From contig NZ_PDBX01000001.1 in NCBI RefSeq assembly GCF_002564105.1, forward strand, positions 4,836,001 to 4,900,000: a DNA stretch of 64,000 bases, given 5' to 3'. Made by a program: the position numbers and the translations under genes. Shown here piece after piece: positions 5,401 to 21,910 of this stretch (the first letter of the stretch is position 1; every line of letters starts with the position of its first letter). Under the pieces are notes generated by a model that saw nothing but the letters and a program-made list of their open reading frames with translations, made no database searches and was not told the DNA's origin. Source of the DNA: Collimonas sp. PA-H2. GTDB taxonomy: Bacteria; Pseudomonadota; Gammaproteobacteria; Burkholderiales; Burkholderiaceae_D.

Positions 5401-5955
5401 CGTGAATGCAAAGCCGCTTGCGGCGGGAGACATGTAGTAGACCCAGGTCGTATAGAGACTGGTGCCGCTGGTGCTGTAGGTGGCAAGTGCAAAATCGGTA
5501 TTTTGCATGTAGGCTTGAATGATCGCCTGGATGCCTGCTTTGGCGATGTTCAGGCGGCTTGCGCCGTTGTCGGCAAGATTGCCGCTTTGCGTCACGGTAT
5601 AAGGCGCGTTTCCCAGGACGTCGGCAGCCTGCAGCGGCGGCGTAAATCCCGCAGGCACCGCATAGGTCGAGGGGGAACTGGAACCGGTGAGCGAGGTCAG
5701 GCCGCTGGCCAGGCTGCCCGAACCGATCATGATGGCGCCGCTCAGGGTGCCGTCCATCGATTCCGAGTTGCCCATGGCGATCAGTACCTGAGGATGTACC
5801 GGCGACGAAACGGTGAGCGGCACCTGGGAAATCGGCAGGATCACGCTCGAGCCGGCGTTAGCTGGGAGCAGAAAATGCGTCAATGCCGCCAGCAGCGCGG
5901 CAACTGCCGCCAGGCCGGCGAATCCGATTCCGGTTCTTCTTTGGCGCGTCATCAT
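2431..5955 (-). CDS. pilY1: Type IV pilus tip adhesin/biogenesis factor PilY1
   Basis: A 1174-residue exported protein. PilY1 sits at the pilus tip with the minor pilins, primes assembly and mediates adhesion and surface sensing. The N terminus is a signal peptide (about residues 1-35). Residues 55-535 resemble the von Willebrand A-like half: [14 protein letters not shown] occupies the MIDAS position but lacks the leading aspartate of the usual DxSxS. Residues 640-1090 contain the Neisseria PilC beta-propeller signature ([37 protein letters not shown]). A calcium-loop-like [12 protein letters not shown] lies at 1102-1113. The length is normal for the family. The gene starts 22 bases after pilX. 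Confidence 0.92.
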
Positions 5956-5977
5956 TCGGCCCCTGGCATCCTTGTGG

Positions 5978-6493
5978 CTACTGTTGAATCTGTACGGTGC
6001 TTTGCAACATCACCGGGGCGCCGCCACTGGGGCCGACCGCGCGCGCGGTGATGCGGAATACCCAGGTGGCTTTCTTCAAGCTTTGCCCGGGAAGAATGAC
6101 TGACGGCAGCAGCTCGATAATGTAGGCAGCCGGCGTCTTCGATCCGCCCTGGAAGCTCTGGATGACCGCACTGCTGCCGGCCCAGTTGACGCTATTCCAT
6201 AGAGCCACACCCGCAGGATTGAAAACATAAAGGCCGTTGTTGTTCGCCAGGAAGCTGTTGGCCGGATAATTGCCCGCCAGAATATTGCTCTGTGCCTGGT
6301 TGAGAGCGCCTTCCGCGGTCTGAAATGCAATCTGCACATCGCCGCTGTTGGTAGCAATCCTGGTCTGCGTGCTGTTCAGAGACACCAGGCCGAGCCCGAG
6401 CACAGTCAGCGTCAACATCAGCATGATCGTGATCAGCAGCACCGCGCCGCGCTGGGCGGGCGCCGGCAGGAGTGGCGATGGACGAGCGCTCAT
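5978..6493 (-). CDS. pilX: Type IV pilus assembly protein PilX
   Basis: A 171-residue minor pilin-like protein. After a 15-residue leader it has QRGAVLLITIMLMLTLTVLGLGLVSL, the PilX pattern in which a hydrophobic helix follows a short basic segment and the cleavage site is less canonical than in PilE. The start codon overlaps the pilW stop (ATGA), giving translational coupling. PilX helps form the priming complex at the pilus tip with PilV, PilW and PilY1. The assignment rests on the N-terminal helix, the size and the gene order. Confidence 0.85.
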   Translation of the reverse strand: MSARPSPLLPAPAQRGAVLLITIMLMLTLTVLGLGLVSLNSTQTRIATNSGDVQIAFQTAEGALNQAQSNILAGNYPANSFLANNNGLYVFNPAGVALWNSVNWAGSSAVIQSFQGGSKTPAAYIIELLPSVILPGQSLKKATWVFRITARAVGPSGGAPVMLQSTVQIQQ

Positions 6494-7572
6494 ACCGCAT
6501 TCCTCAAGTTGATGCTCAGTTCATAGACATGTCGCAAACGCCCGTCCGCGGGGACTGTGACGGTGGTGCCAAGCACTGAGAACTGCCTGGAGGCAGTATT
6601 GCTGGTGGTGCCCGACCCCAGCAGCCCCTGGACCAGGAAGCCGAGGCGGATAGCGTAAACCTTGGTCCAGTCGCTTACTGCGCCGGCGGCGACATATTGA
6701 GTGACGATGCCATTCGCGCCAATCCCGTAGAGTACTTGCATTGTTTCCACCCCAGGCACCAGCGGCTGTGCGGCCCATGCGCCGTTGCTATAGACTGCCC
6801 GCATCAGCGCGCTTTGGTCGCCCACTCCATGGGCAACATAAAATGCGGTTTGTTGAAGCGGGACAAATTGGGAACCAGCGGCATAATTAACCGCCAGCGC
6901 AGCACTGCTGTTGGTCATCGCGCCACTGCCGGTGGCATGCGTGATGGTGTTCGCGGAGACCGCTGTGATTTGAAAGATGCTCGCTTTCAGGCAGTCTGAA
7001 ATTATCCCGATCTGACCTGCACCAAGGCCCGCGGCACTTTGCAAGGTCATCGTGTTGCTGCCGACGGCGATCGCGGTCACGCCGATGGGGCCGGTGTCGG
7101 GCGCTGCGCCAAGTAAGACAAGCACGTCGCTGCCGGTTTCGACATTACCGGTCAGCGTGGAATCCAGTGCAGGTGACCAGTCGCCGGCACTGACATCGTT
7201 GGCGCTGTTGTCTTGTGCGATGCTCAATGCACTGCCGCTGCCTGCGGTTCCCGCAGCGTCATATCCGGACAGCAGACTGGCCTTGGTGGCGATCGTGCCC
7301 AATGGCGGCGGGCCTCCTGCGTTCAGATTCGATAAAGACTGTGTCACCGAGGAGCAGCCGTTAAAGCCGGCTGAGCGTATGACCGGCGTTACAAGTGCAG
7401 CAATGGCGTTTTCCGCATTTTGAATTGCGACCTGCGATGCGCTCGACTTGTACATCTGCGCTTGTACCAGATACACGCTGATCACCGCCCCGCTCACGAA
7501 CAAGCCGATAGCCATAGCCACCATCAGCTCTACCAATGAGAAGCCGCGGCAACGATGGTTCGCCCTGTTCAT
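6490..7572 (-). CDS. pilW: Type IV pilus assembly protein PilW
   Basis: A 360-residue prepilin. The start at 7572 (MNRANHRCRGFSLVELMVAMAIGLF) places the PilD site at Gly10/Phe11 and overlaps the pilV stop by four bases. An upstream extension of the same frame to 7824 runs antiparallel into pilV and carries no pilin sequence, so it was rejected. The C-terminal part is a large Ala/Gly/Thr/Ser-rich globular domain as in other PilW proteins. PilW bridges PilX/PilY1 and PilV in the minor pilin complex. Confidence 0.88.
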   Translation of the reverse strand: MNRANHRCRGFSLVELMVAMAIGLFVSGAVISVYLVQAQMYKSSASQVAIQNAENAIAALVTPVIRSAGFNGCSSVTQSLSNLNAGGPPPLGTIATKASLLSGYDAAGTAGSGSALSIAQDNSANDVSAGDWSPALDSTLTGNVETGSDVLVLLGAAPDTGPIGVTAIAVGSNTMTLQSAAGLGAGQIGIISDCLKASIFQITAVSANTITHATGSGAMTNSSAALAVNYAAGSQFVPLQQTAFYVAHGVGDQSALMRAVYSNGAWAAQPLVPGVETMQVLYGIGANGIVTQYVAAGAVSDWTKVYAIRLGFLVQGLLGSGTTSNTASRQFSVLGTTVTVPADGRLRHVYELSINLRNAV

Positions 7573-8108
7573 AGCAATGTCTGCACAGTGAATTGTGCAA
7601 GATTGGATTTGGATGCCTGTGTCTGGCTGGCGGCGCCGAGCTTGCCTTGTGCCGGACTGTCGTCCCACTGTACGACGATGGTCACCAGGGTGTTGTTGCC
7701 GGTCGGCGCCGCGCCGGTCACAATCGAACCGCTGCCGCTCGGCAGTTGCGCCAGGTCTTTGGCTAGCCAGTACCAGACGTCGTATGCGGCCAGCTGGGTG
7801 GCGCTGCACGCAGTCGTACTGCAATCCGGCGATGCCGCCGCCGGGATGACCGGTGTGCCGCCAGTCGTGATGTTGTTGACCGCATAGCCACCGTTGATAG
7901 CGGTCTGACTGTTGGCGCGGACACGATCGATGACGTCATAGGCGGACTGTACTGCCTGCTGCTTGATGTAGCTCGAGCTGTTGGCCTTATGCGCGGTTAG
8001 CAACAGTCCGGCGATGCCCAGCATGCCAAAAGCCAGTACTACCACCGCGATCAGAACTTCCAATAAGGCAAATCCGGAGTGCCTGCTAGATTTTCTTTTC
8101 AGATTCAT
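7569..8108 (-). CDS. pilV: Type IV pilus modification/minor pilin PilV
   Basis: A 179-residue prepilin beginning MNLKRKSSRHSGFALLEVLI, with the cleavage site after Gly12 and the conserved Glu5 of the mature protein. The ATG at 8108 was chosen because it gives a normal 12-residue basic leader; the frame extends to 8237 but would overlap fimT. The start lies 11 bases after the fimT stop, and its stop overlaps pilW. A tract SPDCSTTACSATQLA carries a likely disulfide. The role is in pilus priming with PilW, PilX and PilY1. Confidence 0.87.
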   Translation of the reverse strand: MNLKRKSSRHSGFALLEVLIAVVVLAFGMLGIAGLLLTAHKANSSSYIKQQAVQSAYDVIDRVRANSQTAINGGYAVNNITTGGTPVIPAAASPDCSTTACSATQLAAYDVWYWLAKDLAQLPSGSGSIVTGAAPTGNNTLVTIVVQWDDSPAQGKLGAASQTQASKSNLAQFTVQTLL

Positions 8109-8119
8109 CGCGGCTCGCT

Positions 8120-8833
8120 TTACGGGCACGCCAAGGCGCCGCCCCATATTGCTTGACCCGGGGTGGGGCCTTGCTGGATGGATCCTGTGGCAATCACCTG
8201 CAATGAACGCGCGAAGGTCGCGCCGCGACTGTCGCAAATCTTGAAATTCGATTGCGTAGCAGCCAGTCCGCGAGAATCAAAGACGATCGCGCTCACCGTC
8301 ACGCCATTGAAAGGGACTGCAGCCAGTATCGGATCGCGTGGTCCAATCTGATAACTTTGCAGAAGAGCGCCCGTTCCCGTAGCCGGCAGCGTGGTGACGA
8401 TCCAGCCGGCTCCCCAATTGGCTCCGCACGTCACGGACCCGACAGCGCCTAGCGGACAGACCTGCGCGTTGACATTCTGGGTGAGCGCATTGGATCTGGC
8501 GTAATTCAAGGCATTCACAAAGGCATTTGCCTGCGCCGACAAGCGATTGTTCATCAGCATGGAACTGAAGGATGGCATGGCAAGCGCCATCAGGATGGAG
8601 GCAATGACGATCGTGATCAACAGCTCAATCAAGGTGAATCCCAGCCGATGCGGAAAGATGGCCGCAAAGCGCTCTAAGAAAAATCGTTCGCCAAATTGCC
8701 TGTGTTGAAGAACCGACTGCAATGAATTGCCGCCATGTCGGGCGGATGCAGACCGTGCTGACCGGACGCAACTCGTCGCTAGTTCGGTCGACCTGGAAGA
8801 GCAAATTGACATCAAGGCTGTCGGTACAGTCAT
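8120..8833 (-). CDS. fimT: Type IV pilin-like FimT/GspH family protein
   Basis: The core is a FimT/GspH pseudopilin: RLGFTLIELLITIVIASILM followed by a GspH-like domain (RLSAQANAFVNALNYARSNA, then VCPLG and CDSRG). FimT heads minor pilin clusters and in some species binds DNA during uptake. The start is uncertain. The prepilin cleavage glycine lies far from any ATG: the ATG at 8833 gives a 65-residue leader, one at 8887 gives 83, and a TTG at about 8722 would give 28. Most prepilin leaders are under 30 residues. The 8833 ATG has only a weak AAGG upstream. The pilin part is secure, the N terminus is not. Confidence 0.78.
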   Translation of the reverse strand: MTVPTALMSICSSRSTELATSCVRSARSASARHGGNSLQSVLQHRQFGERFFLERFAAIFPHRLGFTLIELLITIVIASILMALAMPSFSSMLMNNRLSAQANAFVNALNYARSNALTQNVNAQVCPLGAVGSVTCGANWGAGWIVTTLPATGTGALLQSYQIGPRDPILAAVPFNGVTVSAIVFDSRGLAATQSNFKICDSRGATFARSLQVIATGSIQQGPTPGQAIWGGALACP

Positions 8834-9351
8834 GGCGATCTTTACCTTATGTCTACAGTCGGCCAGGAAGATAGGCAAATAGTTCATGACCGGCGTGCCG
8901 TGTGTGCACGTCTATGCCATAGCAATAGCCGTGGCTGGCTTTCCCTCTCCCAAGTGAGTGGCGGGTTGCGTCGGATGACAGCGCGGTTCAGAAATCGTTA
9001 ACCGCTTATTAACATTAATGCATTGGTCCTCAGAAAAACAGCTGTCAATAGTGATAGGTGGCAATATTTTCTTTTGGCATCAACAATGGACACCGAGAAT
9101 TGCCAACATCGGCGACCTGCTACGTTTTGTGCATTTAAATTGCATGGCGGCCGAGCGCTGTAGTGCCTGTCATCTTGGTTTTGACCGTTGTCGGAACGAA
9201 TCAAGTTGATTATTTGCTTTGCGATTTGTTAAGAGAGGGCTACACTTAATTTCCATGAGGCAATATTTTTCATGCATTAACGCCCGCGAGAATGTCCGAT
9301 GCGCATCGACGTACCGCAGCAATCTTCCCGCCATCAAGAGAGGGATTTGAT
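8834..9351. other. Divergent intergenic region, fimT / ThDP-enzyme operon
   Basis: About 520 bases between two divergent operons. The part at 8990-9250 is visibly richer in A and T than its surroundings, as expected for promoters. A TACACT box near 9240-9246 could be the -10 of the rightward operon, but no convincing -35 was found. No gene, tRNA or clear terminator was seen. An in-frame ATG at 9292 of the rightward frame lacks a good ribosome-binding site. Confidence 0.5.
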
Positions 9352-11211
9352 ATGGGTGCTGACAATTTTCCGGTGTATGGCGATATGCCGAGTAAGAGTT
9401 GGGAACGGCCTTCCGCGTCGCCCATGGTAGTAGCCGATCTGCTGGTGGCCTATCTGGATCAGATGGAAATCGAATGCGTCTTCGGTGTTCCTGGTGGCGC
9501 CATCGAGCCTTTTTTCAATGCCCTTGCCAGGAGCAGCCGCAGGGGCGGAGTGCGTCACGTCCTGGCGCGGCACGAAGCCGGGGCTGCCTACATGGCCGAC
9601 GGCTATGCCCGTGAAACCGGCAAAATCGGCGTCTGCTGCGCCACCTCCGGCCCTGGCTCAACCAATTTGATTACTGGGGTGGCTTGTGCCTACGATAACA
9701 ATATCCCCATGCTGGTGATCACAGCGCAACCAGCCTTGCCTACGTTTGGTAAACATCCTTTGCAAGAGTCAACTTGCACCGGCGTCGATACGCTGAGCAT
9801 GCTACAGCACTGCACACACTACAACTCTCTGGTATCCCATCCGCAGCAGTTCGAAAACAAGCTCATGACTGCTTTGCAGCGGTCCATCCGTACGCCTGTC
9901 GGACCGGTGCACTTAAGCATACCTGTCGATGTGTTTCGTAGTCCGAATACGCAATTAGCTCCTTCCTACGATTTGCAGGCGCTTTTGCAGCCATCATCGT
10001 CGGTTGACGATGAAGCGTTGGCAACGCTGCTTTTGATGCTTTCCAAAGCTGAAAATATCGTTTTACTGATAGGTGTGGGCTGCTGCGAAGCGATTGGCTC
10101 AATACTGGAATTTGCCGACCTGAGCGGTGCTGCGGTGATCACTACACCAGACGGCAAGGGCTTGGTGAATCCGCGTCATCCGCTTTTTCGCGGCGTATTT
10201 GGTTTCGCCGGCCACGCTTCTGCCGAGACGGCATTGCGCGACAAATCGGTGGACTTGATCATGGCGATCGGCACCGGCATGGGGGAGTGGAGCAGTGGCG
10301 GCTGGAGCGACGGCTTGCTCAATTCACGGCTGGTGCATATCGACGATACTGAGGAGCATCTCAGCCAGAGCCCGATGGCGCGTTTTCACATGCGGGGAAG
10401 GATCCTGTCGATCTTCAATCGGCTGATCAAACATATGCAGGATGTTCGTCGATCCGGCAATTTCGAGTATGAGCAGAGACGCTTCGCTCGCAAGCAGCAT
10501 AGCGACCATTGGGAGCCTGAGACGATGCTGATTGCCCCCAAAAAATACGAGAGCAGCGCCATGCCGATCTTGCCGCAACGGCTGATGCGCGAGCTAAGCC
10601 GGCTGTTTCCACCGACCACGCGTTTCCTTGCTGATACTGGAAATAGCGCGGCCTGGGCGATTCATTATTTGCAGCCCCGGGATAGACGGATATCCGAAAG
10701 ACGCCAAGGCGGGGGAGGGAGCACCCGTGCACCGGGAAGGCGCAAGACTTATGGCGGCTGGCTGCGCGTCATCATGAATTTTGCGCCAATGGGCTGGGCT
10801 ATCGGCGGCGCCATCGGCACCGCCATCGGCAATCCAAAAATGCCGGTGGTATGCATTACCGGAGACGGCAGTTTCCTGATGAACGGCCAGGAAATATCGG
10901 TAGCCGTCGCCGAAAAATTGTCCGTCATTTTCGTCGTCCTCAACGACCAGGCCTTGGGAATGGTCAAGCATGGCCAGCGGCTGGCAGAAGCAGAATCGAT
11001 CGGCTGCGATTTGCCGCCTACCGATTTCGCTGCCCTGGCGCGCGCCATGGGAGCTGCAGCCCATACCATTCGCGCGCCTGAAGACCTGGCCAAGTTGGAT
11101 ATCGCTGCAATGTGTACGCGGCCGGGGCCGACGCTGCTGGACGTGCTGATAGACCGCGACGAGGTGCCGCCAATAAATCTTCGCATGCGGGTTTTAGCCG
11201 GAAATCTATAA
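9352..11211 (+). CDS. Thiamine-diphosphate-dependent enzyme, acetolactate synthase-like
   Basis: A 619-residue protein with the three-domain fold of ThDP enzymes of the acetolactate synthase/pyruvate oxidase family. Residues 25-190 are the pyrimidine-binding domain, with the catalytic glutamate in RHEAGAAYMADGYAR (Glu75) and SGPGSTN. The middle domain is at about 205-350. The pyrophosphate domain begins near 415, with GDGSF (504-508) and N531-D532 of the metal-binding motif. Residues near 443-467 form an unusual basic, Gly-rich insertion (DRRISERRQGGGG...). The start at 9352 has an AGAGAGGGA site; an ATG at 9292 does not. It heads an operon with an SDR and two citrate-synthase-like genes, so it probably makes an acyloin or acetohydroxy acid for a specialised pathway. 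The substrate is unknown. A housekeeping IlvB role is unlikely because no small subunit follows. Confidence 0.82.
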   Translation: MGADNFPVYGDMPSKSWERPSASPMVVADLLVAYLDQMEIECVFGVPGGAIEPFFNALARSSRRGGVRHVLARHEAGAAYMADGYARETGKIGVCCATSGPGSTNLITGVACAYDNNIPMLVITAQPALPTFGKHPLQESTCTGVDTLSMLQHCTHYNSLVSHPQQFENKLMTALQRSIRTPVGPVHLSIPVDVFRSPNTQLAPSYDLQALLQPSSSVDDEALATLLLMLSKAENIVLLIGVGCCEAIGSILEFADLSGAAVITTPDGKGLVNPRHPLFRGVFGFAGHASAETALRDKSVDLIMAIGTGMGEWSSGGWSDGLLNSRLVHIDDTEEHLSQSPMARFHMRGRILSIFNRLIKHMQDVRRSGNFEYEQRRFARKQHSDHWEPETMLIAPKKYESSAMPILPQRLMRELSRLFPPTTRFLADTGNSAAWAIHYLQPRDRRISERRQGGGGSTRAPGRRKTYGGWLRVIMNFAPMGWAIGGAIGTAIGNPKMPVVCITGDGSFLMNGQEISVAVAEKLSVIFVVLNDQALGMVKHGQRLAEAESIGCDLPPTDFAALARAMGAAAHTIRAPEDLAKLDIAAMCTRPGPTLLDVLIDRDEVPPINLRMRVLAGNL

Positions 11212-11220
11212 GGAATAGAC

Positions 11221-11970
11221 ATGGGCAAACTGAACGGCAAGACAGTCCTGATTACAGGCGGTTCCAGCGGCATCGGTTTGGCAAGCGCCAAGCTTTTCCT
11301 GGAACACGGCGCCCGTCTGGCGATTACCGGGCGCGATCCGGATGGCTTGGCGCGCGCTCGGGATGAGTTAGGCGGCGACGTCCTGATGATCCGTAGCGAT
11401 ACCGGGAATCTGGCCGAAATCGAATCCTTGATGCAGCAGGTAGAACGCCACTTCACGCGCCTGGACGTGCTGTTCGTCAATGCCGCCGTCGCCGCAGCGG
11501 CGCCCATGGAGCTGGTCTCGGAAACCCTGTTTGACGACATCATGAGGACCAATTTCAAAGGAGCATTCTTCACTATCCAGAAAGCGTTGCCGCTGTTCAG
11601 CGCTGCGGCATCCATCATTGTCACCACCTCGATTGCCAACCAGCTGGGATCGCCGAATTTCAGCGTCTACGGCGCCAGCAAAGCCGCCTTGCGCTCCCTG
11701 GTGCAGTCACTGGGACTGGAACTTGTCAGTCGCGGGATCAGGATCAATGCGATCAGCCCTGGTCCCATCGCCACCCCGATCTTCGATCGTTTCGGCCTGC
11801 CGCCCGACGTTGCCGACGGCATAAAAGCCGAGATTGCGCAAAAGTCCCCGAGCAAACGTTTCGGCCATCCTTCAGAAGTAGCCAAGGTCGCCTTGTTTTT
11901 AGCTTCGGACGACGCTGCCTATGTGCTCGGCGAGGAAATCGTCGTCGATGGCGGCATGAGCCTGCTTTAG
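11221..11970 (+). CDS. Short-chain dehydrogenase/reductase (SDR)
   Basis: A 249-residue classical SDR. It has the nucleotide-binding TGGSSGIG (12-19), a VNAAVA in place of the common NNAG, the catalytic serine in TTSIANQLG, the YGASK motif (Tyr and Lys of the active site), a PGPIATP segment and a C-terminal GEEIVVDGG. The arginine in ITGRDPDG after the second strand suggests NADP(H). The start lies nine bases after the ThDP enzyme stop with an AAGGA site, so the two are co-translated. It probably reduces or oxidises a keto/hydroxy group on the product of the upstream ThDP enzyme; this is inference from context. Confidence 0.88.
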   Translation: MGKLNGKTVLITGGSSGIGLASAKLFLEHGARLAITGRDPDGLARARDELGGDVLMIRSDTGNLAEIESLMQQVERHFTRLDVLFVNAAVAAAAPMELVSETLFDDIMRTNFKGAFFTIQKALPLFSAAASIIVTTSIANQLGSPNFSVYGASKAALRSLVQSLGLELVSRGIRINAISPGPIATPIFDRFGLPPDVADGIKAEIAQKSPSKRFGHPSEVAKVALFLASDDAAYVLGEEIVVDGGMSLL

Positions 11971-11995
11971 CAGTTTCTTTCGACTAGGGGATCAG

Positions 11996-12817
11996 ATGAG
12001 CGATAAAGAAAGCCGGCACAGCATTCGCAGCAGCGTCTGGCAAGAAGAAGCTGAAGAGGACAATCCTTTTGCCGCCGCAGCCTGCTATTGCCGAGGTTAC
12101 GATGTCTATGGCGATTTGCTCGGCAAGATTGCTTATGTCGAATATCTGTACCTCCTGTTCAAAGGCGAACGTCCGGAACCGGCCGTGACCGCAGTCCTGG
12201 AAATACTGGCCGTAGCCTTGGCCAATCCCGGTCCACGCGATCCTTCTGTACACGCGGCGATGGCAGCCGGGGTCGGCGGCTCAACCGCTGCCTCCGTGCT
12301 CATGGCCGCGCTGGCGGTCGGCGCTGGCTCACACGGCGGTGCAAGAGAAATTTTCCTGGCGCTGGAGGCATGGAAGAATCATGGGACCGAACTTGCAAAC
12401 TGGCGCTCCGCTCTTGCCAGCCCAGCCGTGCCGACCCGCCTGCAAGTATGGCCGGAACCGGAGCACCCCCCCGGTTTCGATCCCTACGGAAAACGCTGCG
12501 CGAATCCGGTACGCCAGACCCTCTCGCATCTGGTTGCGATGATGCCCACGGGGCGCCTGGCTTGGTTGTCGCAAGAAAGAGAGGCGCTGGAACTGATGGC
12601 CGGCCATCCGCTGGCAATGACCGGCGTGGCCGCCGCTGCGCTTGCCGATATGGATTTTTCCGCCAGCGAAGGCGAGATGCTGACCTTGCTGCTGCGGCTT
12701 CCCGGAGCCGCCATCCACGCCCTGGAACAAGGCAGGCAGGGTTTTCGTCAATTTCCTTTCTTTGAACTGGATCTGGAAAACGATCCCGGTCCCGCTTTCC
12801 GTGAGGAGCAAGCATGA
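11996..12817 (+). CDS. Citrate synthase-fold protein A (citryl-CoA lyase-like, divergent)
   Basis: A 273-residue protein, much shorter than a full citrate synthase (about 370-430) and closer to compact citryl-CoA lyase/citrate-synthase-like proteins. Family landmarks are the N-terminal GYDVYGDLLGKIAYVEYLYL (34-53) and GSHGGAREIF (111-120), which keeps the first catalytic histidine (His113). The second histidine motif, normally GFGHP, appears as PGFDPYGKR without the histidine, and the usual catalytic aspartate region reads HPLAMTGVAAAALAD with no aspartate at the expected place. The start has an AGGGG site, and the stop overlaps the next gene (ATGA). It probably forms a heteromer with that gene product. 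The reaction is unknown; a C-C bond-forming or cleaving step with a CoA ester is a guess from the fold. Confidence 0.72.
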   Translation: MSDKESRHSIRSSVWQEEAEEDNPFAAAACYCRGYDVYGDLLGKIAYVEYLYLLFKGERPEPAVTAVLEILAVALANPGPRDPSVHAAMAAGVGGSTAASVLMAALAVGAGSHGGAREIFLALEAWKNHGTELANWRSALASPAVPTRLQVWPEPEHPPGFDPYGKRCANPVRQTLSHLVAMMPTGRLAWLSQEREALELMAGHPLAMTGVAAAALADMDFSASEGEMLTLLLRLPGAAIHALEQGRQGFRQFPFFELDLENDPGPAFREEQA

Positions 12818-13620
12818 GCAACGTCTTGCTGGACTATGAAGGTCCATTGCGCACCAGGATGGGCGCATGTTTTCCGGGAGAGCGAGCGGTGTTCCGCGGA
12901 CACGATCTGCATGCGGATCTGAAAGACATGGATTGGATCGCACTATATACCTTCGGCATTACCGGCCGTCGATACTCGCAGGAGCAAATAACCGTTCTGC
13001 ATGCTCTCTGGACCTATACCAGTTACCCGGATCCACGATTGTGGAACAACCGTGTTGCCGCCCTGGCGGGGAGTGCCCGCAGTACCGGCGCACTTGGCGT
13101 CGCTGCGGCCATCGCGGTTTCTGAGGCTTCCATTTATGGATGGCAACCGGAATTCGCCGCGGCAGATTTCCTGGTCCGGGCCCATGACCGCATAAAGGGG
13201 GGCGAGTCCCTGGAAGCAGTTCTGCAGCAAGAGTTGCTGCAGCACCGGCGCATCCTGGGATACGGCCGGCCGGTGGCGACATTGCAGGTGGACGAACGCA
13301 TTCCGGCGATTTTGGCGCGCATGGACGGCGAGAAAATAACGCAGGGTCCGTATCTTCGACTGGCCTTTGACATAGAACGGCAGCTGTTGCGGATGGGGCG
13401 GCAGTTACCGATTAACTATGCGGCCATAGTCGTGGCGATTCCGCTGGATATGGGCTTTTCTCCGCGCGAGTGCTACTTATTCCTGCTTCCCTCATTTATG
13501 GCTGGCATGCCTCCTTGTTATCTGGAAGCTAGCGAACGCCCCGCAGGAGCGACATTCCCGCTACGTTGTTCACAGCTGCGTTATGAAGGACCTGGGCGAC
13601 GGCTTTGGCAACAAGAATAA
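12814..13620 (+). CDS. Citrate synthase-fold protein B (divergent partner)
   Basis: A 268-residue protein translationally coupled to the preceding gene. It has the citrate synthase/citryl-CoA lyase features DPRLWNNRVAALAGSARST (73-91) and ILGYGRPVATLQVDERIP (147-164), where the family normally has GFGHP-DPR; the histidine is replaced by Arg152. The loop that carries HGGA in relatives reads AVSEASIYGWQP, so the first catalytic histidine is also missing, and the aspartate region reads PINYAAIVV. On these residues alone it should not be a canonical enzyme. It may be the non-catalytic or co-catalytic half of a heteromer with protein A. The product of the operon is not known. Confidence 0.7.
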   Translation: MSNVLLDYEGPLRTRMGACFPGERAVFRGHDLHADLKDMDWIALYTFGITGRRYSQEQITVLHALWTYTSYPDPRLWNNRVAALAGSARSTGALGVAAAIAVSEASIYGWQPEFAAADFLVRAHDRIKGGESLEAVLQQELLQHRRILGYGRPVATLQVDERIPAILARMDGEKITQGPYLRLAFDIERQLLRMGRQLPINYAAIVVAIPLDMGFSPRECYLFLLPSFMAGMPPCYLEASERPAGATFPLRCSQLRYEGPGRRLWQQE

Positions 13621-13698
13621 GGTAGTCGATAAGAGGGGATGAGGAATGGTAGCGCGACTTCTTCTGACGATATCTGAGTTGCATCAAATGGAGCAACA

Positions 13699-15810
13699 AT
13701 GAAAAACCGCTGGCAATCTCGACTTCCATGTGCCGTCATCCTGTTTCTGAGCGCCGCCGTGGCTGCGGCACAGCAAAATGCTGATGAAGACGATTTGGTG
13801 CTTTCTTACGGGAACAAGGCGTTCGTCAGCATAGCCACCGGTAGTCAGCAGGATATTTCCCGGGCGCCGGCGGTCGCTTCGGTGATAACCGCCCAGGATA
13901 TCCAGGCCATGGGGGCGACCAATATGAATCAGGCGCTGGAAAGCGTGCCGGGCTTGCATGTCTCTTACTCCGGCCTCTACAACGATCCGATCTACTCCTT
14001 CCGCGGCATCACTACGCAGTACAACCCGCAGACATTGATGCTGGTGAATGGCATCCCCATCAACGACGCTTTTCTCGGCAACCGCGACTTTGCCTGGGGC
14101 GGCGTGCCAGTCCAGAATATAGCCCGTATCGAGATTATCCGCGGCCCTGGATCGGCGCTGTATGGCGCCGATGCTTTCGCCGGGGTCATCAATGTCATTA
14201 CCAAGACTGCAGCCGATATCAATGGCACCGGGTATGGCGCCAGGGTCGGATCGTTCGATACGCATGAGGCCTGGTTTCAGCATGGCGGGAAAATGGGGCC
14301 GCTGGATGTGGCTTTCTACCTTGGCGCGGGCCACACCGGCGGCGCCAATAAAACGATAGACGCAGACGCGCAAAGCGGCCTCGACAAAATCTTCGGAACG
14401 CGGGCTTCACTAGCTCCAGGGCGCGAGCAACTCATGCGCAACAGTCTGGATATGCAGGTCGATATCGCCTATGAGCTATGGCGTTTGCGTGCCGGCTACC
14501 AGGATCAGGAAACCGGCACTGGTGTCGGATTGGCAAACAGCCTCGACCCCGATGCGCGGGTAAGAGCGCAACGCTGGAATGCTGACTTAACCTACTCCAA
14601 CCCCAATTTTTTCCGCAACTGGGATGTCACGGCGCAAGCGTCGGTGAAAGATGTCAACGAACTGCCGGCGTCGCCGCCAACGGTGCTGTTCCCGGCAGGA
14701 GCTTTCGCGGGAGCATTCCCGAGCGGGGTAATCGGTAATCCCGGGCATGCTGAACGCGACAGTCAATTCAGCCTGTCTGGTTTCTATACCGGGTTTGACA
14801 AGCATCGGATCCGGCTCGGCACCGGCTATCGGATTGAAAACTTGTACCAGACCAGCGAGAGCAAGAACTTCAAGATCCTGGCGGTTCCCGGGGTTGGGGT
14901 CGAATTCGTTCCGCTTGCGAGCGTCATTGATGTAAGCGGCACCAGCGACGTATACCTGACTCCCCACAAACGCACCATCAGCTATGTGTTCGCGCAGGAT
15001 GAATGGACTCTGGCAAAAGACTGGACGCTGACTTCCGGAGTACGAGAGGATCGCTATTCCGATTTCGGCAACACCGTTAATCCGCGCCTGGCATTGGTTT
15101 GGGACGCTGCTTATAATTTTTCAATCAAGGCCTTATACGGCAGCGCGTTCCGCGCACCGTCATTCACCGAGCAGTACAGCATCAACAATCCGGTCACCAT
15201 AGGCAATCCCAACCTCAAGCCGGAAACCATTGCCACGCGCGAACTGGCGTTCTCGTGGCAGCCTACTCAGACCCTTCAAACCAATCTGAGCCTGTTTTAC
15301 TACCGCATGCACAACATCATTCAGTTTGTGCCGAATCCTGACCCTTCGAGCGGCTCGACCGCACAAAATACGGGCGATCAAACCGGCCGCGGCCTGGAAA
15401 TGGAAGCAACCTGGGATGCAACGCGCAATCTGCGCTTATCCGGCAGTTATTCGTTGCAACATTCCACAGACCAGACCACCGGTCAGGATGCCGGTCTGGC
15501 GCCTCGTCAGCGTTGGTTCGGTCGCGCCGACTGGCGTTTCGCATCGCTATGGCAATTTGGCAGCACGATCAATCGCGTAACTGACCGCAAGCGACAGCCA
15601 GGCGATACCCGTCCCCAGCTTCCCGATTACACCACTCTGGATTTGAATGTGCGTAAGGAAAAATTGATTGGCAACTGGAGTGTCAGCGCATTGGTGCTGA
15701 ACGTGTTCAATCGAGATGCCAGGGAACCTAGCTTCGCCCCGGGCAACATCCCTTTCGATTTTCCGTTGCCAGGCCGTACTTTCTATGTACAGTTTCAGCA
15801 CAAACTGTGA
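13699..15810 (+). CDS. TonB-dependent outer membrane receptor
   Basis: A 703-residue precursor with a signal peptide (MKNRWQSRLPCAVILFLSAAVAAA). The plug domain (about 45-165) shows the family blocks RAPAVASVITAQDI, MNQALESVPGLHV, SFRGI, MLVNGIPIND and IEIIRGPGSALYGADAFAGV. The rest is the 22-strand barrel, with NPRLALVWD, YGSAFRAPSFTEQY, NPNLKPET and a C-terminal GRTFYVQFQHKL. A GGAG site precedes the ATG. It follows the citrate-synthase-like genes by 78 bases and precedes a binding protein and a c-di-GMP sensor, so it either imports the compound made by, or needed for, the upstream operon, or feeds a signal to the sensor. The substrate cannot be told from sequence, and no Fur box was recognised. 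Confidence 0.92.
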   Translation: MKNRWQSRLPCAVILFLSAAVAAAQQNADEDDLVLSYGNKAFVSIATGSQQDISRAPAVASVITAQDIQAMGATNMNQALESVPGLHVSYSGLYNDPIYSFRGITTQYNPQTLMLVNGIPINDAFLGNRDFAWGGVPVQNIARIEIIRGPGSALYGADAFAGVINVITKTAADINGTGYGARVGSFDTHEAWFQHGGKMGPLDVAFYLGAGHTGGANKTIDADAQSGLDKIFGTRASLAPGREQLMRNSLDMQVDIAYELWRLRAGYQDQETGTGVGLANSLDPDARVRAQRWNADLTYSNPNFFRNWDVTAQASVKDVNELPASPPTVLFPAGAFAGAFPSGVIGNPGHAERDSQFSLSGFYTGFDKHRIRLGTGYRIENLYQTSESKNFKILAVPGVGVEFVPLASVIDVSGTSDVYLTPHKRTISYVFAQDEWTLAKDWTLTSGVREDRYSDFGNTVNPRLALVWDAAYNFSIKALYGSAFRAPSFTEQYSINNPVTIGNPNLKPETIATRELAFSWQPTQTLQTNLSLFYYRMHNIIQFVPNPDPSSGSTAQNTGDQTGRGLEMEATWDATRNLRLSGSYSLQHSTDQTTGQDAGLAPRQRWFGRADWRFASLWQFGSTINRVTDRKRQPGDTRPQLPDYTTLDLNVRKEKLIGNWSVSALVLNVFNRDAREPSFAPGNIPFDFPLPGRTFYVQFQHKL

Positions 15811-15817
15811 GTCATCC

Positions 15818-16954
15818 GTGCTGATTCAGCCGCGCAGGATATCCTTTGCGGCTGTATTGCGGATCGCAGCCGGCCTGCTTCTTTTGCTGGCGTGTGCGTT
15901 CGGCTACGCCGCTCAGGGAAGCGCCGGCCACGATCCTGGCCGGCGCGCCGGCGCGGTCGTCAACCGTTTGCCTGACTGGCGTGAAAATACTGCCGAGGTG
16001 CGCGTGGTGCGCCGCGAACTCCAGCCGCTGATCATAGCCGCCATGGCCACGCTGGATGCGCCAAGGCGACAAGAGATATTGGATGGCAAAGGCGCGATCG
16101 CTGTGATTTATCCGGATATCGGCGAGCCTTATCGCAGCATCTTTTCCAAGATAATCGAAGGCATTCAAGAGCAAGCCAAGGTACAGATAAGCACTTACCC
16201 CGTCGGGCCAAACAGCAATGCTGGCGATCTCAGCGCGCAATTGGTACGCGGCGGTGTCAAGGTGGTGATCGCGCTAGGGCGGCAAGGATTGAAGGCTGTA
16301 TCCGGGCTGACGCCGGAGATAGCGGTAGTGGTTGGCGGTGTGCTGTCAGTGCCGGAAAGCGAAAGCCGCAATCTGACCGGCATCAGCCTGACGCCGGATC
16401 CGGCCCTGCTGTTCGCACTATTGAAAAGGCTGCTGCCCAGCATAAAAAGGGTGACCGTGGTCTACGACCCGCAGCATAACGACTGGCTGATAAAACTGGC
16501 GCGTGAGGCAGCCAAGGCTCAGGGGTTGGAACTGGTCACGCGCGAAGCGCATGACCTGGCTTCGGCGGCGCACCTCTACGACGCTGCCTTCGCCGTCGCC
16601 GATAGCCGGCAGGACGCAATCTGGCTGCCTCAGGATGCCACCACGGTAGATGATGAAACCATCCTGCCGCTGGTCCTGAAGGAATCCTGGAGCAGGGGCT
16701 TGCCTGTGTTTTCCAGCAGCTTCCTGCATGTCAAGAAAGGTGTCATGTTCGCCTTATATCCTAATAACCTGGGACTAGGGCGCGACCTGGCCAGTTCCGC
16801 CTTGGGTGTGCTTTCGGGAGAGTCGCGCAAGCGCGGCGTGTCGCCGTTGCGCGAGGTGCTGACGGCAGTCAATCTGCGCACCGCCAGTCACATCGGATTA
16901 AATCTCGATTATCAGCAGCAACGCAGTTTTGATTTTATCTTTCCAGAGCCTTAG
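15818..16954 (+). CDS. Periplasmic binding protein, ABC_sub_bind (TrpX-like) family
   Basis: About 378 residues from the GTG at 15818, which lies eight bases after the receptor stop and starts just before a membrane-export segment (FAAVLRIAAGLLLLLACAFGYAAQG). A longer frame back to 15716 would run inside the receptor gene. The domain (about 95-375) matches the DUF534/TrpX-type binding proteins: IAVIYPDIGEPYRSIF, VIALGRQGLKAV, GISLTPDPALLFALLKRL, VVYDPQHNDWLI, PVFSSSFLHVKKGVMFALYP. No ABC permease or ATPase follows. The gene downstream is a membrane sensor, so the protein may present a ligand to it. The start codon is less certain than the rest. Confidence 0.78.
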   Translation: MLIQPRRISFAAVLRIAAGLLLLLACAFGYAAQGSAGHDPGRRAGAVVNRLPDWRENTAEVRVVRRELQPLIIAAMATLDAPRRQEILDGKGAIAVIYPDIGEPYRSIFSKIIEGIQEQAKVQISTYPVGPNSNAGDLSAQLVRGGVKVVIALGRQGLKAVSGLTPEIAVVVGGVLSVPESESRNLTGISLTPDPALLFALLKRLLPSIKRVTVVYDPQHNDWLIKLAREAAKAQGLELVTREAHDLASAAHLYDAAFAVADSRQDAIWLPQDATTVDDETILPLVLKESWSRGLPVFSSSFLHVKKGVMFALYPNNLGLGRDLASSALGVLSGESRKRGVSPLREVLTAVNLRTASHIGLNLDYQQQRSFDFIFPEP

Positions 16955-17042
16955 TTGACGAAATCGTTCATGCAATACAGATGCAATCCGCGCGGCCAGC
17001 CAGTATGTGTTGCCTTTTTCCCCTAATTTTGACGAGTCCATC

Positions 17043-20000
17043 ATGTTGCAAGCCTATTTACGCCGCACCGGGTTTCGCCGTCAATTGATGGCGATAGTCA
17101 CCATCTCGATCTTGGGCCTGGCGTTGTTTTCCTCCTTGATGAATTCCTGGCAAACCAACCGCAGCGTGCGGGGCTATCTGATCGAGCAAGGGCTGCATAT
17201 TGCAGAGAATCTGGCGCGCCAGAGCACCCTGGCCTTGCTTTACCATTCCGCGGACAATGTCCGTGAAGAGGTCGCCACCACGCTTGCGTTTCCTGACGTG
17301 ATCCAGGTGGAAATTACTGACACTGCGCACAAAGTCTTGTTGTTGGAAACCAAGGCGGGGCAGGCAGTCAAGCCGACCGAAAACCTGCAGCCCGGTGTTG
17401 TCCTGACCAAGGCCACGCTGGAACAGGAAAATGATAAGGAATGGCGTTTCGGCGCACCGGTTTACCAAGGACACGAAGCAACATCGCCGTTCGAGCTGCA
17501 GGAGAACAAGCCGCAACTCCTTGGATATGTCTATATCGTGCTCGGCAAGGGAACCATGAATCAACTGGTGTTCTCCTTACTGATGGTTAATCTGGCCATT
17601 ACGCTTTCCTTCGCTCTCATCTTGCTCGGAGTCATGCGCCTTTTGGCGCGCAATCTGCTCCGGCCTTTGAATGCCTTGTCCGAGCTGATGGGACGCGCCG
17701 AGGCAGGCGAGTCCGGCATGCGTGCGGTGCGCGAGGGGCCGCGCGACATCATCGACATGGCCCAGGCATTCAATAAAATGATGGCGGTGCTGGAAGAGCG
17801 CGAGCTCGAATTGAAGCAGTCGCGCGACCAGGCATTGCATGCGGCAATGATGAAGGCGCAATTTGCGGCCACTGTCAGCCATGAAGTGCGCACACCCTTG
17901 AGCGGCGTGGTGGGAATGCTGGACATGCTCAGGGAAATGCGGCTTAGCAAGCCGCAAATGGAATGCGTCGAGGTGGCCTGGAGTTCGGCCCACACGCTCA
18001 TCGATCTGATCAACGACGTCCTCGATTTTTCCAAGATGGAGGCGAACAAGCTGGTTTTGGAAGAGATCGATTTCAACTTGCGCAAACTAGTGGAAGAAGT
18101 CCTCGAGCTGCTGGCCAGGCAGGCCCAGGAAAAAGGGCTGGATCTTGGTTATCTGCTGGCAGCCGATGTCGCGGACCGGATCAAAGGCGATTCTATGCGC
18201 TTGCGGCAGGTTCTGATCAACCTGGTCGGAAACGCTTTGAAATTCACCGGGAACGGCCAGGTGGCGGTCCGCATTTCCCGTAATCCGGATAGCGGCGAAC
18301 GCTTCGGCCTGAGGATCGAAGTGAGCGATACCGGTATCGGCATGGACAAGGAAGCGATTCGCCATGTATTCGATTCGTTTGCCCAGGCTGACAGCGCCAC
18401 CGCGCGCCAATACGGCGGCACCGGCCTCGGCCTGGCGATTTGCAAGCAGCTGGTGGAACTCATGGGAGGCGAGATCGGAGTGGTCAGTGCACCGGGCCAA
18501 GGCGCCACATTCTGGTTCACGATTGTCTGCCAGCCAGGCGAGAAGCAAGTCATGCTCGCGCCGGAGCCTGACTTGCATGGGATGCGGGTCCTGATTGCAG
18601 CCAAAAGCGAGATCGTACGCAGCTTCCTGGAGCAAAGCCTGGCCAGTCGCGGAATCCATTGCCGCATAGCCGGCAGTGCTGCGGAAGTCCGGGAAGAACT
18701 GGCGCGGGCGGCGCAAGCGCCATATACGCAGGTTATCGTTGAAGGCAGCCAGGCAGAAGACGAAGATGCGGACTTGCAAAGGTATATCCGCTCCATGCCG
18801 GCGCTGTCGGCGACACGCCTGCTGCTGTTGCAGCACCATGGCGCGCCGAAAGGCGCGCAGTTCAAGGAAGCCGATGCTTATCTGGACAAACCGTTGCGCC
18901 TGCAGCGTTTGTTGGAGGCGATCCGGCAGCCGCAAGCAGATCGACAGCCGGAAGTCGCCAGCGTCTTGAGCGCACATTTGCCGGACGCGCTACCTCCCAA
19001 GCCAAAAAAATACAGCGTGTTGGTGGTCGATGACAATCGCACCAATCAGGTGGTGGCTACCGGCATGCTAGTCATGAGCGATTGTCTCTGTGAATGTGTC
19101 GACAATGGCTGGGAGGCGATCGACACGGTTCAGCGCAACCGCTTTGATCTGATTCTCATGGATTGCAATATGCCTGAGATGGACGGCTATGAAGTCACCG
19201 CGCGAATTCGCAAGCTCGAAGAGCTTGAAGGACGGCATACGCCAATCGTCGCCATGACTGCCAATACCCAGAGCGGTGACGTGGAAAAATGCATGGCGGC
19301 AGGCATGGATGATTACCTGGCAAAACCAATCACCCTGATCGAGCTGCGGCGCAAGCTGGAGCGCTGGCTGATTCAAGCTGCCGGAAGCAAGGCCGGGGAA
19401 CCTGAAGCGGCATTGAGGGCTGCGAACCTGGTCGAGAGTGAAGGCCGTCCCTTGGACCGCTTGGTTTTCGACAAGCTGCGGGAGATATTGGGGCCAAGCT
19501 TGCAACATGCAATAACACCCTACCTGGAAGACACGCCGCTTAATCTTGAACAACTGAAGCAGGCGGTCGAACAGAGGGATGCGGAGGCCGTCCGGTCTTT
19601 GGCCCATACTATCAAGGGTAGCAGCGGCAACTTGGGGGCAATCAATATGACCCAGTTGGCCAAGAAAGTGGAGGAGCTGGAGCAGGCCGGACAGATCGAT
19701 GAAATCCCCCCTTTGCTGCCGCAATTGCGTTCAGCGTTCGATGATGTGGCAGCCCTGCTGTACAGCGAGGTGTCAAGCGAAAACTATTTCAGCACCAAGC
19801 CGACGGAAGGCAGCGCCCTGGTGTTGGTGGTCGATGATGACCGCAGCACCCGCAGCGCCCTGCGTTACACCTTGTTAAGAGACGGCTTCCGGGTGGCGGA
19901 GGCGGAAAATGGCGCCCAGGCATTACGTGTCCTTAAGCGTATCAAGCCGGATGTCATACTGATGGATGCCGTGATGCCGGTGATGGACGGCTTTACCGCC

Positions 20001-21530
20001 TGCGCTCGCATGCAAGAGCTGCCCGGCCGCCAGCATATCCCCGTGCTGATCATCACCGGCCTGGAAGACAACCTGTCGGTGGAGCGTGCGTTCGCAGCCG
20101 GAGCCAGCGACTATATCCCCAAGCCTATCCACTTCGCGGTCCTGCCGCAACGGGTGCGCCGGATTGTCGAAGCCAATCGTGCGGAGATGCGGGTGCGCAA
20201 CCTGGCCTTCAACGATTCGTTGACAGGCCTGCCGAACCGGGCCATGTTTTTCGATCAGTTAAAGCGCTGCATCGAGCAGGCACGGCAAAGCGGAAATGGC
20301 GCGGCGGTGCTGTTCCTTGATTTGGATCGCTTCAAGTACGTGAACGACACTCTTGGCCACGATGTCGGGGATCAATTGCTGATAGCCGTGGCACGTCGAA
20401 TCCAGCGCAGCGTGCGCGTCGTCGACTGCGTGGCCCGCTTGGGCGGGGATGAATTCACCGTCGTGCTGGCGGATGTGACGACATCGAATACAGCCACTAT
20501 CGTAGCCCAGAAAATTTGCCAATCCTTATCCAAGCCTTTTCTGATCGCAGGCCACGGTATCGTCGTCAGCGCCAGTATCGGTATTTCCCTCTATCCTCAG
20601 GATGGCGCCGATGTGGGAACCTTGCTGCAGCATGCGGATACCGCAATGTACCGCGCCAAGAAAGCAAGTTCCGGTTTCATGTTTTTCGAACCTTCCATGG
20701 AACATTCAATATCGGAACGTATGCGCTTGGAAAGCGACCTGCGCGAAGCATTGCATCGGAAGGAATTGGATGTGTTTTATCAGCCGCAAGTCCAATTCGA
20801 CACAGGTCGCATCGTTGGCATGGAAGCGCTGGTACGTTGGCGCCATCCGACTCGAGGCATGCTGGCGCCCAAGGAGTTCATCCCGCTTGCAGAAGAAACC
20901 GAGCTGATCAACATCATTGGCGCCTGGGTCATGCGTACCGCGTGTTTTCAATTACAGAGCTGGATCAAAGCAGGCATGCCGGCAATGAGGATGGCTGTGA
21001 ATTTTTCCGTAAGGCAACTAAGATCCGATTTCACTGCGGCTGTGGAGCAGGTCCTGGTAGAAACCGGTTTGCCGCCGCAGCTGCTGGAGCTGGAGATCAC
21101 TGAGAGCACTCTCATGGAAAACGCCGAAGATAATTTGCAGGCATTACATCGGCTGCATACTCTCGGAGTGCGCCTGACTATCGACGATTTCGGTACCGGT
21201 TATTCCTCACTTGCTTACCTCAAACGTTTTCCTGTCGATATCATCAAGATAGATCAGTCTTTCGTGCGCGACGTCCCTCATGATCTGGACGACGCCGCCA
21301 TCGTTAAAAGCATTATTGCGCTGGCGCATAGCTTGCGTCTCGAAGTGGTTGCCGAGGGAGTGGAAAATGAATCTCAACTTGATTTCTTGAGAGGCAATTC
21401 ATGTGATTTGATGCAAGGTTATTACTTTGGGAAGCCCATGCCGGCGGAACAGTTCATTCGTTTTGTCATGGAACAAGATAGTCTTCAACGGGCAGAGCTC
21501 CTCGACTCTCGAACAGGCCCTTACCAATGA
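17043..21530 (+). CDS. Hybrid sensor histidine kinase with three receivers, HPt, GGDEF and EAL domains
   Basis: A 1495-residue cytoplasmic-membrane signalling protein. In order: TM1 (about 15-35), a periplasmic sensor (40-170), TM2 (about 175-200), HAMP, HisKA with SHEVRTPL (His280), HATPase with GTGLGLAI, a first receiver that is degenerate (acidic pair lost, phospho-Asp replaced by Glu567), a second receiver (Asp707), HPt (AHTIKGSSG, His855), a third receiver (Asp975), GGDEF intact at 1134-1138, and EAL intact (Glu1261-Leu1263). It could relay phosphate internally and then make or break c-di-GMP. An in-frame GTG at 17007 lies upstream; the ATG at 17043 puts the basic N terminus directly before TM1. 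It is the last gene of the receptor/binding-protein array. Confidence 0.93.
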   Translation: MLQAYLRRTGFRRQLMAIVTISILGLALFSSLMNSWQTNRSVRGYLIEQGLHIAENLARQSTLALLYHSADNVREEVATTLAFPDVIQVEITDTAHKVLLLETKAGQAVKPTENLQPGVVLTKATLEQENDKEWRFGAPVYQGHEATSPFELQENKPQLLGYVYIVLGKGTMNQLVFSLLMVNLAITLSFALILLGVMRLLARNLLRPLNALSELMGRAEAGESGMRAVREGPRDIIDMAQAFNKMMAVLEERELELKQSRDQALHAAMMKAQFAATVSHEVRTPLSGVVGMLDMLREMRLSKPQMECVEVAWSSAHTLIDLINDVLDFSKMEANKLVLEEIDFNLRKLVEEVLELLARQAQEKGLDLGYLLAADVADRIKGDSMRLRQVLINLVGNALKFTGNGQVAVRISRNPDSGERFGLRIEVSDTGIGMDKEAIRHVFDSFAQADSATARQYGGTGLGLAICKQLVELMGGEIGVVSAPGQGATFWFTIVCQPGEKQVMLAPEPDLHGMRVLIAAKSEIVRSFLEQSLASRGIHCRIAGSAAEVREELARAAQAPYTQVIVEGSQAEDEDADLQRYIRSMPALSATRLLLLQHHGAPKGAQFKEADAYLDKPLRLQRLLEAIRQPQADRQPEVASVLSAHLPDALPPKPKKYSVLVVDDNRTNQVVATGMLVMSDCLCECVDNGWEAIDTVQRNRFDLILMDCNMPEMDGYEVTARIRKLEELEGRHTPIVAMTANTQSGDVEKCMAAGMDDYLAKPITLIELRRKLERWLIQAAGSKAGEPEAALRAANLVESEGRPLDRLVFDKLREILGPSLQHAITPYLEDTPLNLEQLKQAVEQRDAEAVRSLAHTIKGSSGNLGAINMTQLAKKVEELEQAGQIDEIPPLLPQLRSAFDDVAALLYSEVSSENYFSTKPTEGSALVLVVDDDRSTRSALRYTLLRDGFRVAEAENGAQALRVLKRIKPDVILMDAVMPVMDGFTACARMQELPGRQHIPVLIITGLEDNLSVERAFAAGASDYIPKPIHFAVLPQRVRRIVEANRAEMRVRNLAFNDSLTGLPNRAMFFDQLKRCIEQARQSGNGAAVLFLDLDRFKYVNDTLGHDVGDQLLIAVARRIQRSVRVVDCVARLGGDEFTVVLADVTTSNTATIVAQKICQSLSKPFLIAGHGIVVSASIGISLYPQDGADVGTLLQHADTAMYRAKKASSGFMFFEPSMEHSISERMRLESDLREALHRKELDVFYQPQVQFDTGRIVGMEALVRWRHPTRGMLAPKEFIPLAEETELINIIGAWVMRTACFQLQSWIKAGMPAMRMAVNFSVRQLRSDFTAAVEQVLVETGLPPQLLELEITESTLMENAEDNLQALHRLHTLGVRLTIDDFGTGYSSLAYLKRFPVDIIKIDQSFVRDVPHDLDDAAIVKSIIALAHSLRLEVVAEGVENESQLDFLRGNSCDLMQGYYFGKPMPAEQFIRFVMEQDSLQRAELLDSRTGPYQ

Positions 21531-21809: not shown

Positions 21810-21910
21810 GAAGGAGATTCCGGTTGATGAGTAAAAGATGGGGCTTTAGATGGATAAATTTGTGGGATATTTTGCGCGAGTCTCCTATTTTCTTCTCTGC
21901 ACGGCTCTGC

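What the first reader, a model, noticed from the sequence alone, without database searches (positions are those of the whole stretch)
9352..13620. Four-gene operon joining a ThDP enzyme, an SDR and two small citrate-synthase-fold proteins
Seen: the genes are on one strand with spacings of 9 and 25 bases and a 4-base overlap, so they are translated together. Known: ThDP enzymes of this family make acyloins or acetohydroxy acids, SDRs change keto/alcohol state, and citrate-synthase-fold enzymes join or cleave C-C bonds with CoA esters. Inference: together they could build or degrade a branched hydroxy acid not belonging to central metabolism. I do not know a named pathway with this set. It lies next to a receptor and sensor array that might take up or detect the product.
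Basis: partly seen in the sequence, partly recalled or inferred. Interest (0 to 1): 0.72.

Follow-up and report, generated by a model that had tools for sequence, protein, structure and literature searches.

The report
Make-and-sense chemical signalling gene module
The four genes look like the enzyme half of a larger gene module, found in many distantly related bacteria, that seems to build a small molecule and to carry a matching surface receptor and sensor; it may be an undescribed way for bacteria to make and perceive a chemical signal.

The parts
9352..11211 (+). ThDP-dependent enzyme, acetolactate-synthase superfamily, closest solved relatives BbmA and CsmA
   Evidence: PF02776, PF00205, PF02775; PDB 8x3x E 4.7e-81; catalytic Glu75 in 73 of the 73 sequences with a letter there, GDG in 75 of 75, Asn531 in 74 of 75
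11221..11970 (+). SDR oxidoreductase, optional tailoring enzyme
   Evidence: PF13561 E 1.3e-60; 29 of 80 stretches, 2 of 14 test stretches
11996..12817 (+). CSL1: citryl-CoA-lyase-fold protein without the full catalytic triad
12814..13620 (+). CSL2: second citryl-CoA-lyase-fold protein, catalytic His replaced by invariant Arg152, D-E-R motif
13699..15810 (+). TonB-dependent outer-membrane receptor, no N-terminal signalling domain found
   Evidence: PF00593 and PF07715; 66 of 80 stretches; 14 of 14 test and 0 of 33 control stretches; next best match in the own genome 54.5 bits
15716..16954 (+). PF04392 substrate-binding protein, probable signal peptide by eye; true start uncertain (the ORF overlaps the receptor gene)
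   Evidence: PF04392 E 1.4e-13; 58 of 80 stretches; 14 of 14 test and 0 of 33 control stretches
17007..21530 (+). Hybrid sensor kinase: sCache_4, HAMP (below cut-off), HisKA, HATPase, receivers, Hpt, GGDEF, EAL
   Evidence: Pfam; kinase match in 63 of 80 stretches, but also in 4 of 33 controls; GGDEF and/or EAL motif in the gene following the binding protein in 40 of 58

Best explanation
A mobile make-and-sense module. The ThDP enzyme (inferred) decarboxylates one 2-oxo acid and joins the acyl anion to a second 2-oxo acid, giving a 2-hydroxy-3-oxo acid. The CSL1-CSL2 pair, probably a heteromer, binds this acid in a remodelled citryl-CoA-lyase pocket and carries out or controls the next step by non-canonical chemistry; an SDR or a sulfotransferase tailors the product in some lineages. 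The product leaves the cell by an unknown route, is bound again by the dedicated TonB-dependent receptor, is passed to the periplasmic PF04392 protein, and this instructs the sensor kinase, whose usual output is c-di-GMP turnover. Shown here: gene conservation, fold, lack of the full triad, no ABC ATPase neighbour. Inferred: the reaction, the product, that product and ligand are one compound, and the signalling role.
For: Core genes stay together across classes. Whole genomes: the 18 CSL1 genomes among 399 of the order all carry the module-type ThDP (20 genomes at 870 bits or more; Fisher p 2.7e-29), and so do all 28 among 360 of the class (48 ThDP genomes; p 4.0e-29); the window genome is in both samples. 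The receptor at 640 bits or more is in 17 of the 18. Distances of five core proteins (kinase not included) correlate: 0.40-0.78 over 49 loci, 0 of 500 permutations as high. The ThDP enzyme resembles the synthases BbmA and CsmA (276 and 238 bits; best acetolactate synthase chain 195) and shares their G-F-x-G-H stretch. No ABC ATPase motif within 2.5 kb of the binding protein in 58 of 58, while the other PF04392 gene of the genome has one next to it. G037, G071 and G120 have the receptor, with binding protein and sensor gene in three of their four loci, and no CSL1 match (E 0.001) or ThDP match (E 1e-120): receiver-only. G062 and G281 have a sulfotransferase gene beside receptor and ThDP where no CSL is found, which speaks for synthesis of product variants.
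Against: No exporter was recognised among the recurrent neighbours, read by eye. Nothing shows that receptor ligand and enzyme product are the same compound. The distance correlation is partly shared ancestry, and both profiles were built from linked loci. Receiver-only genomes are also expected if the ligand comes from the environment, and only the top 2 to 7 first-look candidates per genome were scored, so absences are not final. 14 of 80 stretches show no receptor, and 12 of 20 ThDP stretches without a close CSL1 show none; some end at a contig edge, not all. L065 (7.2 kb upstream in view) has the CSL pair and no ThDP hit. 2-hydroxyacyl-CoA lyases are also among the solved relatives of the ThDP enzyme (157 bits).
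Confidence: 0.5

Rival explanations
1. Catabolic module: receptor, binding protein and kinase detect an environmental compound, and the ThDP and CSL proteins degrade it.
For: Receiver-only genomes fit sensing of an external compound; the PDB list contains 2-hydroxyacyl-CoA lyases (157 bits) and benzaldehyde lyase (99 bits), at lower scores than BbmA and CsmA.
Against: No ABC ATPase motif beside the binding protein (0 of 58) and no transporter recognised by eye among the 18 neighbour clusters found in four or more loci (one of them is an unidentified membrane protein in four loci), so no route to the cytoplasmic enzymes is seen; nearest solved enzymes are synthases; a sulfotransferase is usually a biosynthetic enzyme (general knowledge).
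Confidence: 0.22
2. Metal acquisition: the product is a small hydroxy-acid metallophore recovered by the TonB-dependent receptor, with the kinase as a metal-status sensor.
For: The receptor belongs to the broad heme, siderophore and B12 receptor group; hydroxy-keto acids can chelate metals (general knowledge).
Against: Best matches to a recalled Fur-box consensus upstream of 73 ThDP and 66 receptor genes are no better than in shuffles; no ABC ATPase for uptake; no siderophore gene recognised by eye among recurrent neighbours.
Confidence: 0.12
3. The enzymes make a compound unrelated to the sensor, and the genes travel together for another reason, for example shared control of a surface lifestyle.
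For: Order and strand of receptor, binding protein and kinase vary, and they are sometimes divergent from the ThDP-CSL block (L042, L049, L064, L080).
Against: 14 of 14 test stretches hold all six genes, while none of 33 controls holds more than a kinase match; receptor distances follow the ThDP and CSL distances.
Confidence: 0.13

Closest known systems
LuxS/LuxP/LuxQ (autoinducer-2) signalling
   Same: A synthase, a periplasmic binding protein and a hybrid sensor kinase (recalled description)
   Different: The binding protein is PF04392; the synthase would be a ThDP enzyme; a TonB-dependent receptor is included; the gene after the binding protein carries GGDEF and/or EAL motifs in 40 of 58 loci
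Alpha-hydroxy-beta-keto acid synthases CybE, BbmA, CsmA (furanolide and related pathways)
   Same: BbmA and CsmA are the best solved sequence relatives and share a G-F-x-G-H stretch; CybE condenses two 2-oxo acids (PMC12395478, abstract, introduction and one passage read)
   Different: In furanolide clusters the partner is CybF, called a 3-oxoacyl-ACP synthase (PMC8777810, passages); here it is the CSL pair. The window enzyme has an extra Arg-rich stretch near residues 443-468
Citryl-CoA lyase (6hxp; NCBIfam PRK06224 group)
   Different: No Asp at the catalytic position, His replaced by Arg in CSL2, and two unlike genes side by side
PQS-iron uptake through the TonB-dependent receptor FptA in Pseudomonas aeruginosa
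   Same: A signal molecule entering through a TonB-dependent receptor (PMC10846271, start of abstract in a listing)
   Different: There the receptor is that of a siderophore and serves iron uptake; here the receptor gene is linked to a ThDP enzyme and a c-di-GMP sensor
FecA-type cell-surface signalling
   Same: A TonB-dependent receptor linked to a regulator (recalled description)
   Different: No N-terminal signalling domain in the window receptor in Pfam at E up to 1; the regulator is a kinase or c-di-GMP protein

Membership tests
Citryl-CoA lyase / citrate synthase | Fold | tested here: met
Citryl-CoA lyase / citrate synthase | Catalytic His-His-Asp triad (motifs recalled, placed on five reference lyases by alignment) | tested here: not met
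   CSL1: first His H in 5 of 80, Asp 0 of 80, second His kept at H157 by profile alignment (78 of 80) or deleted by multiple alignment. CSL2: Tyr108 or Ile107 for the first His, Arg152 in 78 of 78, Asp 0 of 78
Citryl-CoA lyase / citrate synthase | Curated family score | tested here: not met
   CSL1 63.6 bits against cut-off 245, CSL2 39.5 against 193; Pfam CSL1 15.3 against 27
Biosynthetic acetolactate synthase | Curated score TIGR00118 | tested here: not met
   285 bits against 538.35
ThDP enzyme | Catalytic Glu and GDG...N cofactor motif | tested here: met
Alpha-hydroxy-beta-keto acid synthase (CybE/BbmA/CsmA) | Closest sequence relatives among solved structures | tested here: met
Alpha-hydroxy-beta-keto acid synthase (CybE/BbmA/CsmA) | Condenses two 2-oxo acids | not testable with these tools
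   Needs an assay
ABC importer with PF04392 binding protein | ATPase gene next to the binding protein | tested here: not met
   0 of 58 within 2.5 kb by motif search; one positive control, in the own genome, has one
FecA-type transducer | N-terminal signalling domain on the receptor | tested here: not met
   Only plug and barrel models in the window receptor
Quorum sensing | Receptor responds to the product of the linked synthase | not testable with these tools
   Needs mutants and spent medium
Quorum sensing | Synthase and receptor genes linked and co-inherited | tested here: met

The most novel reading that the evidence does not exclude
A new class of bacterial chemical communication: a ThDP-made, TonB-gated autoinducer, processed by a pair of unlike proteins of the citryl-CoA lyase fold that lack the ancestral catalytic triad, perceived through an outer-membrane receptor, a periplasmic binding protein and a c-di-GMP sensor, with tailoring variants (SDR, sulfotransferase) giving chemical dialects and receiver-only species listening in.
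Probability: 0.38. Interest if true: 0.9.

Novelty: new variant of a known kind. Interest (0 to 1): 0.72.

Why it matters
If the product is the ligand, this is a signalling system whose signal must cross the outer membrane by energised transport, in many environmental Proteobacteria. The CSL pair would be a testable case of a metabolic enzyme fold that no longer shows its catalytic triad and is kept as an obligate pair.

Tried and rejected
Four-gene unit as the boundary: rejected. Ordinary citrate synthase or lyase activity for the pair: judged unlikely, with the caveat that six PRK06224-like relatives from weakly matching loci also lack the first His (6 of 6) and mostly the Asp (5 of 6) while keeping the second His, so loss of the triad is not peculiar to this pair. 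Placement of the second His in CSL1 is unsettled: profile alignments put it on H157, three multiple alignments show a deletion there, and the models are of low confidence in residues 107-112 and 149-165. Iron regulation: Fur-like matches no better than shuffles. ABC import: not supported by motif search. Sigma-70 promoter and terminator scan of 8900-23200: counts at chance level. My first ORF-based table missed genes hidden by longer antisense ORFs and was replaced by tblastn. The first distance correlations included the divergent Geobacter group and made CSL1 look weakly linked (0.36 with ThDP); without that group it is 0.57. Of 20 class genomes that have the ThDP enzyme but no CSL1 at E 1e-60, 6 carry a divergent CSL pair in the stretch fetched. 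In five of these CSL1 the second His is Ser, the first is His in 3, and the Asp is absent. Literature: searches returned no paper, and the papers listed do not describe this module by title and start of abstract (open-licence papers only, so publication elsewhere is possible).

Dropped rows: L085-L101 (about 3.8 kb each) were left out, which counts the window and the 79 loci (the best 80 of 209 related stretches). Control stretch L132 (221 bases) was dropped, 33 of 34 used.
Full report
Observation. The window lies in a 5.95 Mb genome in two contigs; the closest named proteins are from Collimonas. The four ORFs and their spacings are as described. The next gene starts 78 bases after CSL2, with a GGAG stretch before its ATG, and codes for a TonB-dependent receptor; a PF04392 binding protein and a 1507-residue hybrid kinase with GGDEF and EAL domains follow on the same strand.

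Conservation. With the window (80 stretches, up to 9 kb each side), tblastn at fixed bit thresholds finds CSL2 in 80, ThDP in 77, receptor in 66, kinase in 63, binding protein in 58, SDR in 29. CSL2 is within 300 bases of CSL1 on the same strand in 79; in L014 the best hit is a second copy, and another copy lies beside CSL1. ThDP is within 2 kb of CSL1 in 76. Record titles include Collimonas, Pseudoduganella, Dechloromonas, Gallionella, Aquabacterium, Roseateles, Porticoccaceae, Cognaticolwellia, Geobacter, Pelotalea and a MAG labelled Fibrobacteres. In the Geobacter group the ThDP, receptor, binding protein and kinase matches are divergent (about 22-37% identity). Of the three loci without ThDP, L054 starts near a contig end, L010 shows 2.5 kb upstream and L065 7.2 kb upstream without it.

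Controls. In 14 stretches around CSL1 in order genomes all six core genes are found in 14 (SDR 2 of 14); in 33 control stretches (611 kb; 13 from the same genomes, 18 from the window's own genome, 2 more from G219 and G249) none has ThDP, CSL, SDR, receptor or binding protein, and 4 have a kinase match. Kinase matches alone are therefore weak evidence. In the window's genome the receptor's next best relative scores 54.5 bits, the ThDP enzyme's 127 bits, and two PF04392 genes were found.

Whole-genome co-occurrence. Of 399 order genomes, 18 have a strong CSL1 (E 1e-109 or better); 14 others score only 4e-9 to 4e-4, and the 12 of these whose loci I read look like lyases or PRK06224-like relatives. 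The ThDP profile scores at least 870 bits in 20 genomes, including all 18; one more scores 444 bits. The receptor profile scores at least 640 bits in 22 genomes: 17 of the 18 (not G159), the two ThDP genomes without CSL1 (G062, G281), and three with neither (G037, G071, G120); five more score 474-616 bits. Of 360 class genomes, CSL1 is found in 28 at E 1e-60 or better and the ThDP enzyme in 48 at E 1e-120 or better, including all 28. These searches score only a few first-look candidates per genome. A one-contig genome of the same genus (G007) shows none of the three, so the module is patchy even within the genus.

Variants. In G062 and G281 a PF13469-type sulfotransferase gene sits next to the receptor gene and near the ThDP gene, and no CSL is found in the stretch (Pfam scan of the G281 copy; the G062 copy read and 69% identical to it). 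Relatives of it lie beside the CSL pair in L014, L033, L057 and L082 (L082 scanned). G037, G071 and one of two G120 loci have receptor, binding protein and sensor gene with no ThDP or CSL in the stretch; in G037 the sensor gene reads HAMP-PAS-GGDEF-EAL. Among 20 class stretches with ThDP but no close CSL1, 6 have a divergent CSL pair, 8 a receptor and 6 a binding protein; the rest show the ThDP gene without these partners in view, some in cut contigs.

The ThDP enzyme. Its best solved relatives are BbmA (276 bits) and CsmA (238 bits), ahead of acetolactate synthase (195 bits), 2-hydroxyacyl-CoA lyase (157 bits) and glyoxylate carboligase (155 bits). The G-F-x-G-H stretch is shared with both and kept in most module enzymes (F285 70, G287 75, H288 70 of 75). 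PMC12395478 (first of five parts of the text and one passage read) says that CybE joins two 2-oxo acids by acyloin condensation, and names CsmA and 'BpmA' as two new CybE homologues; PMC8777810 (passages read) calls CybF a 3-oxoacyl-ACP synthase. I take BpmA and the PDB name BbmA to be the same protein, which I did not verify.

The sensing half. The binding protein has no ABC ATPase motif within 2.5 kb in 58 of 58 loci, while the other PF04392 gene of the genome has a neighbouring ATPase and, by eye, a permease-like gene. The gene following it carries GGDEF and/or EAL motifs in 40 of 58 loci and a HisKA motif alone in 10; 7 show none and one is cut. Together with a receptor lacking a FecA-type signalling domain, this fits a relay across the periplasm to a membrane sensor.

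Judgement. That the genes form a conserved unit of biosynthetic and perception genes is well supported. That it is a self-made signal is the most economical reading but rests on linkage, co-inheritance, absence of an importer gene, tailoring variants and receiver-only genomes; none of these shows that product and ligand are one compound.

Noticed in passing
window 2431-8887: By sequence look (not scanned), a type IV pilus minor-pilin block on the - strand (PilY1-like protein and PilX/W/V/FimT-like prepilins) directly upstream of the module; pili are a common c-di-GMP target (general knowledge).
   Followed up: no
window 37027-41533: MFS, HlyD-type and outer-membrane efflux genes on the - strand, a tripartite-exporter-like set, about 15 kb downstream of the module.
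   Followed up: no
window 23113-25646: 616-residue ORF with no Pfam match at 1e-5 (23113-24963), followed by a spore-coat-U-domain protein at 25104-25646.
   Followed up: no
L014: Pseudoduganella namucuonensis: a second ThDP (13433-15244) and CSL2 (16086-16880) lie after the first set, with several sulfotransferase-like genes, suggesting a tandem duplicated module.
   Followed up: partly
L032, L048, L053, L058: By eye, a leucine-dehydrogenase-like gene and branched-chain 2-oxo acid dehydrogenase-like genes lie upstream of the module in four gammaproteobacterial loci; may hint at branched 2-oxo acids as substrates.
   Followed up: no
L017, L021, L030, L035, L037, L038, L059: By eye, an aconitase-B-like gene lies upstream of the module on the other strand in seven loci; may be plain local synteny.
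   Followed up: no
G115:C4:25379-26182 (L100) and G442:C1:1019922-1020728 (L259): CSL1 matches with one in-frame TGA each; could be a sequencing error or a decayed copy.
   Followed up: no
window 10670-10760 (ThDP residues about 443-468): Arg-rich stretch in the window enzyme that is not aligned with BbmA or CsmA and varies among module enzymes.
   Followed up: partly
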